From contig CM075102.1 in NCBI GenBank assembly GCA_037576195.1, positions 3,100,001-3,164,000 on the forward strand: DNA of 64,000 nt. The letters run 5' to 3'. Within the stretch, counting starts at the first letter, position 1. Each line of letters opens with the position of its first letter. The notes under the pieces were generated by a model. It was not told the DNA's origin. It saw only the letters and a program-made list of their open reading frames with translations, and searched no databases. The stretch comes from Phytoseiulus persimilis. Its lineage: Eukaryota > Arthropoda > Arachnida > Mesostigmata > Phytoseiidae. A program made the translations under genes and the position numbers. Positions 50,660 to 63,105 of the stretch are shown piece after piece.

Positions 50660-50666
50660 TATAAAA
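50660..50666 (+). promoter_or_regulatory. TATA box of neuropeptide gene 1
   Basis: TATAAAA stands 66 bp before the start codon of the precursor at 50,726, which puts transcription start near 50,685-50,695 and leaves a leader of about 35-40 nt. A TCAAG at 50,683-50,687 is a possible weak initiator. Confidence 0.7.
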
Positions 50667-50725
50667 CGAGACGATGCTCGAGTCAAGAAGGACAGGGCAT
50701 CAGGACCTCATCACATCCCGCCAAG

Positions 50726-51088
50726 ATGCGCTTTCCCTTCCTTTTCTTCAGCGCCTTTTTGGTCGCTCACGTTTTCCAACCGGCGCTGTCACAGGAGGTG
50801 AGTCCGACGAGGGAATAGTGTAGTTCGATAAATCCATCATCTACGCAATGAAATGCCGCCGTCGGTACAGCTCTCTATGGATGTAAGAAGTGAATATTTC
50901 CTGAAACCACGTGGATTTATTTTCAGGCAACTGAGATGCGGGGTCACTTTTTCCTGGTGCCGAACGAGAATTTCTCACCCTCGAACGGGCGGGTTCCACG
51001 CTCAGATTTCCCGTCGAGACCTGCAGCTGTGAATGGAGATAAAAGAGGCGATTTAGACTCTCTCAGTGGGATGGCTTTTGGACGCTGA
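50726..51088 (+). CDS. Secreted neuropeptide precursor 1 (GDLDSLSGMAF-amide)
   Basis: Exon 1 is 50,726-50,797 and exon 2 is 50,927-51,088, joined in phase 0 across a 129-nt GTGAGT...TTTTCAG intron. The product is 77 residues. Residues 1-23 are a signal peptide (MRFPFLFFSAF...), with likely cleavage near ALS-QE. The middle contains HFFLVPNEN and RSDFPSRP. A Lys-Arg pair (39-40 of exon 2) then releases GDLDSLSGMAF followed by GR and the stop, which is a standard prohormone-convertase site and a Gly amidation donor. A TATA box and a poly(A) signal bracket the gene. A paralogue lies at 62,708-63,036. The LDSLSG core recalls orcokinin-B-type peptides, but this was not verified, and orcokinin precursors are usually multi-copy whereas this one carries a single peptide. 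Confidence 0.85.
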
Positions 51089-51211: not shown

Positions 51212-51217
51212 AATAAA
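51212..51217 (+). terminator. Poly(A) signal of neuropeptide gene 1
   Basis: AATAAA lies 124 nt after the stop codon, a normal distance for a short peptide-precursor mRNA. Confidence 0.7.
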
Positions 51218-52996: not shown

Positions 52997-53842
52997 CTAG
53001 TGATCCTTCTTCCGAATCGGATACTCGAACTCCGGTGGCGTGATTTCTGCCATGACCAAATCTCGTTCGATCCGTCGTCGATCGAGATATGTTTTCATGT
53101 AGAAGTTCAAGAACAATCCGAGGATCAGAACCACCTGGATGGTGGCGAAGTACACCAAGTATCTCGGGAATCCACAGTCGTACATCAGCGGAATGCTCAT
53201 ATGAAGGATCGCAAACACGAATTGGCCGATCTGGAGCTGCGTGAGGAACTTTTTCCACCAGAGGAACTTTCTGAGAGCGGGATACGTCGCCATGAAATAA
53301 TAAGAGTACATCAGAACGTGAATGGAGGCGTTGATGAACAGGCCCAAGCCTGGCTGGCCCTCCGGGGCGAAGCCGAACCAGAACGACGCGTTGAACGCGA
53401 CGATCGTGTGGTGGATGACGTGGAGATTGGTCACGTGACTGAACTTCTTCTTCAAAATGAAGAAGAAAGTGTCGAAGAAGTCGAGATAGCGCACGAAAAT
53501 GTAGTAGTATCCAACCCGGATGAGTTTACGGTGTCCTTCGTCGTCGCGTCCTGTGATGCCCTGACAGAAGAACGAGTAGGATCCGTTGCCGTAGGTCAGT
53601 GGGAAGCAGATCGCGAGAAAGGCGACGTTCGCGATCACCATGAACAAATTATGGATTCGCATAACCCATCGGAGGTCCATTGGTTTCCGGTCCTCCATCC
53701 AACGTTCTCCGTTCCGGACGATGAAGAGGTACGTCGCGATAATGGTGGACACGAACACGGGATTCGTGACGAGGGGGTAGTCGTAGGTCCGGGGGTCTTG
53801 CTTGAGCCCGAATCGCTGCCAGAGGGGGGCGATCGACTCCAT
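52997..53842 (-). CDS. Very-long-chain fatty acid elongase (ELOVL/ELO family), single exon
   Basis: A 281-residue multipass ER membrane protein of normal family length. It catalyses the condensing step of fatty-acid elongation, joining malonyl-CoA to an acyl-CoA. The ELO motifs are all present in order: YLDFFDTFFFILKKK (120-133 region), the catalytic histidine box HVIHH (141-145), NASIHVLMYSYYFM (171-184) and TQLQIGQF (201-208). Hydrophobic segments occur at about 28-43, 66-83, 205-225 and 230-248. The C-terminus ends KKDH, a dilysine ER-retention signal. The start ATG has a good context (CGCCATGG), with no upstream ATG seen back to the predicted start site. The coding part is uninterrupted, unlike the intron-rich gene nearby. 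Substrate chain length cannot be read from sequence. A 316-codon antisense frame (53,000-53,950, +) is a shadow. Confidence 0.97.
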   Translation of the reverse strand: MESIAPLWQRFGLKQDPRTYDYPLVTNPVFVSTIIATYLFIVRNGERWMEDRKPMDLRWVMRIHNLFMVIANVAFLAICFPLTYGNGSYSFFCQGITGRDDEGHRKLIRVGYYYIFVRYLDFFDTFFFILKKKFSHVTNLHVIHHTIVAFNASFWFGFAPEGQPGLGLFINASIHVLMYSYYFMATYPALRKFLWWKKFLTQLQIGQFVFAILHMSIPLMYDCGFPRYLVYFATIQVVLILGLFLNFYMKTYLDRRRIERDLVMAEITPPEFEYPIRKKDH

Positions 53843-58844: not shown

Positions 58845-59684
58845 CAGAGTTGGGCAGATTCGAATCACTTTCGATTCGAATCAAGTTGATTCGAATCACC
58901 TGATTCGAATCGAGAAACATCGAATCAAAAGTGATTCGAATCAAAAACCGTCGAATCAGGCTGATTCGAATCAAAAGTGATTCGAATCATTTTGATTCGA
59001 ATCAGGATCGATCATCTGATTCGAATCACACGATTCGAATCACTCTGATTCGAATCAGAAAATGATTCGAATCAAAATTTGATTCGAATCAAAGTTTGAT
59101 CCGAATCATTTTCTGATTCGAATCCTTACTACATATACTCGGCTTAGTCCGGGACCAGTCTGACCATACTTTTCGAAAGCTGGAGGGGTGATTCCGAGAC
59201 CAATCTGAGCATTACTTCCCAGTTGTTCCCAGAGTTGGGAAGTAATGCTCAGATTGGTCACGGAATCACCCCTCCAGAGTTGGGAAGTAATGGCCAGATT
59301 GGTCTCGGAATCACCCCTCCAGAGTTGGAAAGTAATGTGCGGACAAACTGACAAACTAAGCCGATCATATATAGTAGGGATTCGAATCAGAAAATGATTC
59401 GAATCAGAACATGATTCGAATCCTCTGGTTCGAATCAAAAATGATTCGAATCAGGATCATCGAATCACTTGATTCGAATCAGAAATGATTCGAATCAGGA
59501 TGATTCGACTCAGAAGCTATCGAATCACGTGATTCGAATCAAAAATGATTCGAATCATTTTGATTCGAATCAGGACGATTCGAATCACATCTGATCCGAT
59601 CTGATTCGAATCCAATGATTCGAATCAGAGGAGATTCGAATCAAAATGATTCGAATCAAAATGATTCGAATCTGCCCAACTCTG
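58845..59684. mobile_element. hAT-like foldback MITE built from GATTCGAATC palindromes
   Basis: The ends are perfect inverted repeats of 23 bp, beginning CAGAGTTGGGCAGATTCGAA, which is the CAG-nG-TGG style of hAT termini. They are flanked by a perfect 8-bp target duplication CTTCACGC (58,837-58,844 and 59,685-59,692), the hAT size. The two arms, about 284 and 310 bp, are arrays of the self-complementary decamer GATTCGAATC. I count 29 exact copies by eye, with many near copies, at irregular 1-12 bp spacing. The whole element is therefore one long potential hairpin. It has no coding capacity. A second inverted-repeat unit occupies its centre. Confidence 0.9.
59129..59374. mobile_element. TA-flanked inverted-repeat element nested at the palindrome centre
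   Basis: The ends begin CTACATATACTCGGCTTAGT and, reverse-complemented, CTATATATGATCGGCTTAGT (17 of 20 match). Both sides are flanked by TA, the Tc1/mariner-type target. Inside, a unit of about 45 bp (GGAGGGGTGATTCC...AGTAATG... in inverted form) occurs once in the left arm and about two and a half times in the right arm, so the interior also folds back. It is 246 bp with no coding capacity. It could be a nested insertion or the original loop of the larger palindrome. Confidence 0.65.
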
Positions 59685-61839: not shown

Positions 61840-61848
61840 ATAATTTGC

Positions 61849-62137
61849 GGGTGCCCGTCAACTGGGCCCCGGCGTCAACTGGGCCACGGGGTCAACAGGG
61901 GCCTTAACCTGATCTCACCGGATTCCCCCGCACGATTTCGAGTGCGCTGGCTGTCGATCTGCTCGCATCGCTCCGCTCGTTCGCCCGAGCCCTAACCTAA
62001 CCTCACCCAATCTCCCAATCCGCTTCAAGTCCGCTGCCTGCCGGTCCGCTCGGAAGTCGACGGCGAGGCCCACTTGACGCCGGGGCCCGGTTGACGCCGA
62101 AGCCCAGTTGACGCCGCGGCCCAGCTGACGCGCTCCC
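61849..62137. mobile_element. Foldback MITE with 9-bp target duplication (MULE-like)
   Basis: A perfect 9-bp direct repeat ATAATTTGC (61,840-61,848 and 62,138-62,146) flanks 289 bp. The termini are GGGTGCCCGTCAACTGGGCC and, reverse-complemented, GGGAGCGCGTCAGCTGGGCC (17 of 20 identical). Each arm continues as tandem units of about 17 bp with the core GTCAACTGGGCC, three on the left and four on the right in inverse orientation. A 9-bp duplication and GG ends point to a Mutator-like family. There is no coding capacity. Confidence 0.85.
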
Positions 62138-62474
62138 ATAATTTGCCGTGTCTTCTTGAAGTGCTTTCTCCGAATTCCCCCACGGATCGACAAGACTTCA
62201 AATATTGTCGCTCGTGCTTCCTGGTGGATCGATCCCTCAAGGTATATTGACAGGATGCTACTCGATCCGCGGAAACAGCATCGAACAGTGGAATGTGGAA
62301 ACCTCTCACGGCTTCGTTTGTCCAGAACCAGGGTCTGCGGGCGAGTTCGCGGCTTGAGGGAGGGGAAGAACCGTGTTCGAGCCTCGAGCGGGCCGTTCCC
62401 GGGATCGGTTGACGGATTTGGCCGGGGCAATGAGTACGCCATTCTCTCAGGTGGGATTTTGCAATGCGAATCGT

Positions 62475-62480
62475 TTTATT
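62475..62480 (-). terminator. Poly(A) signal of neuropeptide gene 2
   Basis: AATAAA on the minus strand, about 228 nt after the stop codon of the precursor. Confidence 0.55.
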
Positions 62481-62707: not shown

Positions 62708-63036
62708 TTACCTCCGACGACCAAAGGCCATTCCGCTGAGAGAGTCGAGACCCCCTCGCTTACCTCCGTGGACCATGCTGCCACCTACCGGAGAGTAATC
62801 GCTTCGGAGCAGCCCGGCGCCGTTGGGGAGGTTCCCATTCGGAACGAGATACAATCGACCGACCTCCGTTGCCTGCAACCAAACGCAGCGTTCGAGATCG
62901 GTTTCTCAGAGTTCGGTTTTTTCGTCTGATTCCGCGGAACTCGGACCGCGAGGCCACTCACCCTTTGAGCATTAGCTGTTGGAGCGTAAGCAGCAACTGC
63001 AAGAAGAGCACACAGGCACAGGAAAGCGGTTCGCAT
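62708..63036 (-). CDS. Secreted neuropeptide precursor 2 (GGLDSLSGMAF-amide)
   Basis: Exon 1 is 63,036-62,962 and exon 2 is 62,872-62,708, joined in phase 0 across an 89-nt GTGAGT...GTTGCAG intron. The product is 79 residues. Residues 1-23 form a signal peptide (MRTAFLCLCALL...), with likely cleavage after ANA. The middle contains LYLVPNGN and LLRSDYSP. A Lys-Arg site then precedes GGLDSLSGMAF-GRRR-stop, so dibasic cleavage and amidation at Gly are predicted. Precursor 1 has the same intron position, the same ATE residues at the start of exon 2, the LVPNxN and RSD words, and a C-terminal peptide identical at 10 of 11 positions. The promoter is a textbook TATA plus TCAGT pair. The exact peptide family is unverified. 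Confidence 0.87.
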
Positions 63037-63068: not shown

Positions 63069-63105
63069 ACTGATGCCCTACGCCGCAGACCACGGCTTAT
63101 ATATA
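63069..63105 (-). promoter_or_regulatory. TATA plus initiator promoter of neuropeptide gene 2
   Basis: On the minus strand TATATATAAG (63,105-63,096) is followed by TCAGT (63,073-63,069). The A of the initiator (63,071) lies about 31 bp after the TATA start, the canonical spacing. The leader would be about 35 nt. Confidence 0.8.

What the first reader, a model, noticed from the sequence alone, without database searches (positions are those of the whole stretch)
62708..63036. Paralogous neuropeptide gene about 12 kb away in opposite orientation
The second precursor has the same two-exon layout, the same intron phase and position, and a terminal peptide GGLDSLSGMAF that differs from the first only at residue 2. 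This is strong internal evidence that both are real and under selection, because the C-terminal peptide is far better conserved than the signal peptide and spacer.
Basis: seen in the sequence. Interest (0 to 1): 0.8.

Follow-up and report, generated by a model that had tools for sequence, protein, structure and literature searches.

The report
Duplicated amidated neuropeptide precursor gene pair
Two small genes about 12 kb apart, pointing at each other, each appear to encode a secreted precursor that ends in nearly the same short amidated signalling peptide, one that resembles the orcokinin family of arthropod neuropeptides but is carried once per gene.

Summary
Gene B (minus strand, exons 63036-62962 and 62872-62708, 89-bp intron, 79 aa) ends KR^GGLDSLSGMAF-G-RRR-stop. 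Gene A (plus strand, exons 50726-50797 and 50927-51088, 129-bp intron, 77 aa) ends KR^GDLDSLSGMAF-G-R-stop. Both introns are phase 0, just before a shared "ATE". One amendment: the start of the spacer (ATE..LVPN.N) is also conserved. The only other clear genomic match is a 52-bp fragment of gene B on another contig. The peptide resembles pedal-peptide/orcokinin neuropeptides, most of all a locust orcokinin-gene peptide, SGLDSLSGATFGEQ, but is single-copy and predicted to be amidated at the Phe where orcokinins usually run on. I read it as an amidated, orcokinin-like neuropeptide gene pair. Function, expression and ancestry are not shown. The genome is probably a phytoseiid mite's (inference). 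No related genome could be searched and I saw no chelicerate neuropeptide sequence catalogue, so novelty is uncertain.

The parts
62962..63036 (-). Gene B exon 1: signal-peptide-like segment MRTAFLCLCALLAVAAYAPTANAQR
   Evidence: hydrophobic core read by eye, no signal predictor was run
62873..62961 (-). Gene B intron, 89 bp, phase 0, GTGAGT...TTGCAG
62708..62872 (-). Gene B exon 2: ATEVGRLYLVPNGNLPNGAGLLRSDYSPVGGSMVHGG-KR-GGLDSLSGMAF-G-RRR-stop
62723..62755 (-). Predicted mature peptide B GGLDSLSGMAF-amide (KR at 62756-62761, G-RRR at 62711-62722)
   Evidence: cleavage and amidation inferred from the sites
63096..63105 (-). TATA-box-like sequence of gene B
63070..63079 (-). AGGGCATCAG, 10-mer shared with the gene A upstream region
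   Evidence: 21 of 1000 shuffles share a string at least as long
62475..62480 (-). AATAAA poly(A)-like signal of gene B, 228 nt past the stop
50726..50797 (+). Gene A exon 1: signal-peptide-like segment MRFPFLFFSAFLVAHVFQPALSQE
   Evidence: read by eye
50798..50926 (+). Gene A intron, 129 bp, phase 0, GTGAGT...TTTCAG
50927..51088 (+). Gene A exon 2: ATEMRGHFFLVPNENFSPSNGRVPRSDFPSRPAAVNGD-KR-GDLDSLSGMAF-G-R-stop
51047..51079 (+). Predicted mature peptide A GDLDSLSGMAF-amide
50660..50666 (+). TATAAAA of gene A
50694..50703 (+). AGGGCATCAG shared 10-mer, gene A
51212..51217 (+). AATAAA poly(A)-like signal of gene A

Best explanation
Two paralogous genes each encode a small secreted precursor. In each the signal segment would be removed, a convertase would cut after Lys-Arg, a carboxypeptidase would trim the trailing Arg residues, and the exposed Gly would be turned into an amide. 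That would release GGLDSLSGMAF-amide (gene B) and GDLDSLSGMAF-amide (gene A), most likely a neuropeptide or peptide hormone acting on a G-protein-coupled receptor. The peptide is best read as an orcokinin/pedal-peptide-like signal cut short and amidated at the Phe-Gly where orcokinins usually continue. Shown: gene anatomy, paralogy, selective conservation of the peptide, sequence resemblance to orcokinin-type peptides. Inferred: processing, amidation, neural or endocrine expression, the receptor, and descent from orcokinins. The confidence given is for a pair of amidated neuropeptide or hormone precursors; true kinship with orcokinins is a part of that, which I hold at a little over even.
For: Matching exon-intron structures, KR site and Gly-Arg end. 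Peptide conserved while silent sites are near saturation. TATA-like and AATAAA-like elements at both genes. Against the locust orcokinin-gene peptide (entered without its first S), 0 of 10000 shuffles of either peptide reach the observed score; against ten other orcokinin-type or nematode peptides, 25 of 10000 (B) and 23 of 10000 (A). B scores 17 to 32 on those ten and at most 14 on 27 peptides of other families. The locust peptide is printed in PMC4237046 (passage), C. elegans nlp-14 ALDGLDGSGFGFD in PMC3527849 (passage), AFDSLAGSGFGAFN in PMC5344539 (passage). NFDEIDRSGFa, an amidated orcokinin ending at the same Phe, is in the lobster peptide table of PMC4696782 (passage).
Against: The peptide lacks the NFDEIDR sequence, occurs once per precursor, and is not a free acid by prediction. 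The match to the four crustacean orcokinins alone is modest (17-18). The comparison set is biased towards a match: the locust peptide was found by searching for LDSLSG, and the two C. elegans peptides and their kin because I recalled that they look alike. The ten include near-identical rows, and the 27 controls are often shorter; one of them (GDGFAFSPRL) still averages 14.1 on the ten, against 20.5 for B. A query of locust/Tribolium orcokinin-gene peptides found nothing in the genome, not even these two genes. No expression data, no orthologue from a second species, no receptor evidence; no Pfam or NCBIfam model at E up to 1.
Confidence: 0.72

Rival explanations
1. An independent, lineage-specific amidated neuropeptide family; the orcokinin resemblance is convergence on a short motif. 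(This contradicts only the orcokinin part of the best explanation, so the odds overlap.)
For: Single copy per precursor, amide end, no NFDEIDR motif; modest scores against crustacean orcokinins and a comparison set chosen with the motif in mind.
Against: GLDSLSG.xFG is shared with a locust orcokinin-gene peptide, and the aligned Phe-Gly coincides with the Phe-Gly of crustacean orcokinins and of the two C. elegans peptides.
Confidence: 0.33
2. A secreted peptide that is not neural: a gland, gut, reproductive or immune peptide that happens to be amidated.
For: Anatomy alone cannot tell the tissue; amidation also occurs in non-neural secreted peptides (general knowledge).
Against: The short linear peptide, free of cysteine and of basic residues, kept almost unchanged in both copies, is more typical of a receptor ligand than of an antimicrobial or venom peptide (inference).
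Confidence: 0.2
3. One copy is a decaying relic.
For: Spacers and signals have diverged strongly.
Against: Both have intact frames, splice sites, KR, amidation Gly, TATA-like and AATAAA-like elements, and 14 of 15 identical residues in the KR-peptide-GR block at near-saturated silent divergence.
Confidence: 0.04
4. Chance open frames.
For: Both precursors are short.
Against: Peptide pattern found twice against 0.01 expected; propeptide score 118 against a shuffle maximum of 47; matching intron position.
Confidence: 0.01

Closest known systems
Orcokinin gene products of insects: locust orcokinin-A-transcript peptide SGLDSLSGATFGEQ (PMC4237046, passage seen)
   Same: GLDSLSG-x-x-F-G core; predicted from a neuropeptide precursor
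   Different: The locust peptide is printed with EQ after the Gly and comes from a transcript that also encodes orcokinin A's and orcomyotropins; here one predicted amidated peptide per small precursor
Pedal peptide/orcokinin family: crayfish NFDEIDRSGFGFN (PMC5656890), C. elegans nlp-14 ALDGLDGSGFGFD (PMC3527849) and AFDSLAGSGFGAFN (PMC5344539; its name NLP-15 is recalled); passages seen
   Same: [F/L]-D-x-[I/L]-x-x-x-x-F-G spacing
   Different: Those peptides are printed without an amide and continue past the Gly; here Arg follows the Gly, predicting an amide
NFDEIDRSGFa in the lobster peptide table (PMC4696782, passage seen)
   Same: Ends in an amide at the same Phe
   Different: Listed among the isoforms of the lobster orcokinin family beside NFDEIDRSGFGFN; I did not see how it was identified. 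Here the truncation is fixed by the gene itself

Membership tests
Neuropeptide precursor (general anatomy) | N-terminal hydrophobic signal segment, dibasic cleavage site, amidation Gly followed by basic residues | tested here: met
   Read from the translations; no signal-peptide predictor was run
Neuropeptide precursor (general anatomy) | Expression in neurons or endocrine cells and release of the peptide | not testable with these tools
   No expression or peptidomic data
Orcokinin/pedal peptide family | Core spacing [F/L]Dx[I/L]xxxxF | tested here: met
   25 of 10000 shuffles reach B's score on ten peptides, 0 of 10000 on the locust peptide; the set was chosen with the motif in mind
Orcokinin/pedal peptide family | NFDEIDR-type N-terminus of arthropod orcokinin A | tested here: not met
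   Peptides read GGLDSLSGMAF and GDLDSLSGMAF
Orcokinin/pedal peptide family | Several related peptides in one precursor (usual; whether universal was not checked) | tested here: not met
   One KR-peptide unit per precursor
Orcokinin/pedal peptide family | Free-acid C-terminus beyond the Gly | tested here: not met
   F-G-RRR-stop and F-G-R-stop; an amidated NFDEIDRSGFa is nevertheless listed for lobster
Orcokinin/pedal peptide family | Shared receptor or gene descent | not testable with these tools
   No other arthropod genome could be searched

The most novel reading that the evidence does not exclude
In this lineage the ancestral multi-copy, free-acid orcokinin gene has been lost or has diverged beyond recognition, and its role is carried by two single-copy genes that encode truncated, amidated orcokinins. 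Arg right after the conserved Phe-Gly would have made a gene-encoded amide.
Probability: 0.25. Interest if true: 0.6.

Novelty: new member of a known kind. Interest (0 to 1): 0.42.

Why it matters
It adds a pair of small genes likely to be missed by annotation, with an internal comparison that marks the peptide as the selected part. If the orcokinin link is right, it shows how a free-acid neuropeptide can become an amidated one through a basic residue gained after a conserved Gly, and it gives concrete synthetic ligands for finding arthropod orcokinin-type receptors.

Tried and rejected
A third genomic match at C3:23269848-23269922 (1 stop inside) is a 52-bp, 98% identical piece of gene B (window 62735-62786) near a reading frame that looks like a retroelement gag by eye (no search run): a dead fragment, not a third gene.

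The weak match of A's propeptide at C2:24149886 (E 0.84) lies in sequence with nothing precursor-like that I could see by eye, and was judged chance.

Canonical orcokinins: protein queries gave E 3.05 (42% identity, in a region of short repeated units), nothing and E 0.40 in an open repeat of 15-residue units. The NFDEIDR pattern with up to 2 mismatches gave 204 places against 39 for the reversed control, an excess that I did not explain; 100 were listed, and I read the frames of only the 12 that came with loci: 0 of 12 stands directly behind Lys-Arg. As a control, a 15-residue CCAP query found a CCAP-like precursor at E 0.004. So loss of canonical orcokinin is suggested at most; one search did not recover even the two genes studied here. 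A tick does have an annotated orcokinin gene (table row in PMC7828734, passage).

Literature: LDSLSGMAF, SGMAFamide, DSLSGMAF and LSGMAF were found in no paper of the held library; SGMAFG hit one unrelated paper. LDSLSG together with neuropeptide hit one, the locust paper. Searches for mite or tick neuropeptide papers gave listings, from which, for ticks and mites, I looked only at passages of PMC7828734 and PMC6902594. I recall a 2016 survey of chelicerate neuropeptide genes by Veenstra; I did not try to fetch it and saw nothing of it.

No relative in viral contigs: 10 stretches matched a pattern, none confirmed. Two chance-level PDB matches, E 0.69 and 0.72.

Full report
What is there. Gene B lies on the minus strand at 62708-63036 exactly as reported: ATG at 63036, exon 1 of 75 nt, an 89-bp GT-AG intron, exon 2 of 165 nt ending TAA at 62708. 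It encodes MRTAFLCLCALLAVAAYAPTANAQR / ATEVGRLYLVPNGNLPNGAGLLRSDYSPVGGSMVHGG-KR-GGLDSLSGMAF-G-RRR. Gene A lies on the plus strand at 50726-51088 with a 129-bp intron and encodes MRFPFLFFSAFLVAHVFQPALSQE / ATEMRGHFFLVPNENFSPSNGRVPRSDFPSRPAAVNGD-KR-GDLDSLSGMAF-G-R. Both introns are phase 0 and precede ATE. The stops are 11.6 kb apart and the genes converge. An ELOVL-type fatty-acid elongase reading frame lies between them (52997-53842 minus; Pfam ELO, E 1.8e-54).

More than chance. A degenerate pattern for B's peptide, up to 3 mismatches, gave 2 matches (B by construction, A with 1 mismatch) against a mean of 0.01 in 100 shuffles. The propeptides score 118 against a maximum of 47 in 2000 shuffles; with KR and the peptide removed the spacers score 50, and 0 of 5000 shuffles reach that; the signal segments score 30, reached by 4 of 5000. 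At the DNA level the one significant alignment runs from the last 11 nt of the intron to the Arg after the amidation Gly (169 nt of A, 65% identity, E 3e-11); exon 1, the rest of the introns and the flanks compared gave nothing better than E 0.03.

Amino-acid identity: KR-peptide-GR 14 of 15, spacer 16 of 36, signal 9 of 24; Fisher p for peptide against spacer 0.0014. pS is 0.83, 0.66 and 0.84 (saturated or nearly so), while pN is 0.06, 0.38 and 0.41. In the peptide block 11 of 45 nucleotides differ, 8 at third positions; random placement of 11 differences left at most one amino-acid change in 0 of 20000 trials. Within the spacer, the first 15 codons (ATE..LVPN.N) have pN 0.20 and the other 21 have 0.52, so a second block also looks constrained; a shared R-S-D-[FY] follows it. 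The numbers are small and silent sites are near saturation, so a dN/dS ratio would be only nominal.

Promoter and 3' ends. TATA-like sequences lie 66 (A) and 69 (B) nt before the ATG, and a 10-mer AGGGCATCAG is shared 34 and 26 nt further on; 21 of 1000 shuffles share a string at least that long, so this is suggestive only. AATAAA occurs at 51212 for A and at 62480-62475 for B, 228 nt after B's stop.

Rest of the genome. The assembly is 181 Mb in 127 contigs. Queries with the 17-residue end of B and with each propeptide found A and B every time; B's propeptide also found a 52-bp, 98% identical fragment of B on contig C3, and A's also one chance-like match, E 0.84. There is no third intact gene at this sensitivity; the tool scores only its best candidates.

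What it resembles. Pfam and NCBIfam show no family for either precursor at E up to 1. In the paper library, LDSLSG with neuropeptide occurs in one paper, PMC4237046, as the predicted locust peptide SGLDSLSGATFGEQ of the orcokinin A transcript, which the author says shares similarity with both orcomyotropins and orcokinin B's (passage). In an ungapped comparison, B's peptide with its Gly scores 45 with the locust peptide (entered without its first S) and 31-32 with C. elegans ALDGLDGSGFGFD and AFDSLAGSGFGAFN; it scores 17-19 with the other eight of the ten-peptide set and at most 14 with 27 peptides of other families; 25 of 10000 shuffles reach its mean on the ten and 0 of 10000 reach its locust score. 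The set was chosen by me with the motif in mind, and four of its ten are peptides of other nematodes whose place in the orcokinin family I recall rather than read. In these alignments the amidation Gly falls on the Gly that follows the Phe in orcokinin NFDEIDRSGF-GFN. The lobster table of PMC4696782 lists NFDEIDRSGFa, amidated at that same Phe (passage); I did not see how it was identified. PMC5656890 (passages) describes pedal-peptide/orcokinin peptides as a bilaterian family that includes two nematode precursors, and notes a possible resemblance of the Trichoplax SITFamide precursor, which may be convergence.

Canonical orcokinin. Three protein queries and one pattern search gave no convincing orcokinin precursor, while a CCAP query found QKRPFCNAFTGCAGKR. 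Of 204 pattern places (39 in the control) I read 12. Absence is therefore only suggested.

Organism. Arthropod is supported by the CCAP-type precursor (family knowledge recalled). Phytoseiid mite is my inference from 181 Mb, 51-54% GC in the window and a few very long contigs (C2 52.0 Mb and C3 38.9 Mb long; C1 at least 54.6 Mb). The phytoseiid Neoseiulus cucumeris is put at 173 Mb, with three chromosomes in males (PMC6902594, passages). No sequence was compared with a named mite.

How it most likely works. Signal removal, convertase cleavage after KR, trimming of Arg, amidation of the Phe through the Gly, release, and action on a G-protein-coupled receptor: all inferred from the sites. The two copies may differ in where they are expressed, or in potency through Gly or Asp at residue 2; that is untested.

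Verdict. The kind of gene is ordinary; the amidated, single-copy orcokinin-like peptide and its duplication are the interesting part.

Noticed in passing
G000 C3:23269848-23269922 (L006 1522-1573): A 52-bp, 98% identical piece of gene B exon 2 on another contig, near a gag-like reading frame (by eye); looks like a recent short templated copy.
   Followed up: partly
L024, C1:23946030-23946074: CCAP-like precursor reads KR-PFCNAFTGC-A-G-KR, with an extra Ala before the amidation Gly compared with the usual PFCNAFTGC-amide (recalled).
   Followed up: no
window 61842-62144: Inverted repeat with 62-nt arms, 81% complementary, holding 17-bp units (consensus CGTCAACTGGGCCACGG), like the ends of a mobile element, some 330 bp past the poly(A)-like signal of gene B.
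   Followed up: partly
window 58857-59672: Tandem arrays built on the palindrome GATTCGAATC, interrupted by a 45-bp unit array (59229-59337) that by eye resembles the 45-bp-unit open repeat at L023 (C4:2372124).
   Followed up: no
window 62762-62872 and 50927-51040: The propeptides share a conserved block ATE..LVPN.N and a following R-S-D-[FY], possibly a second functional peptide or a sorting segment.
   Followed up: partly
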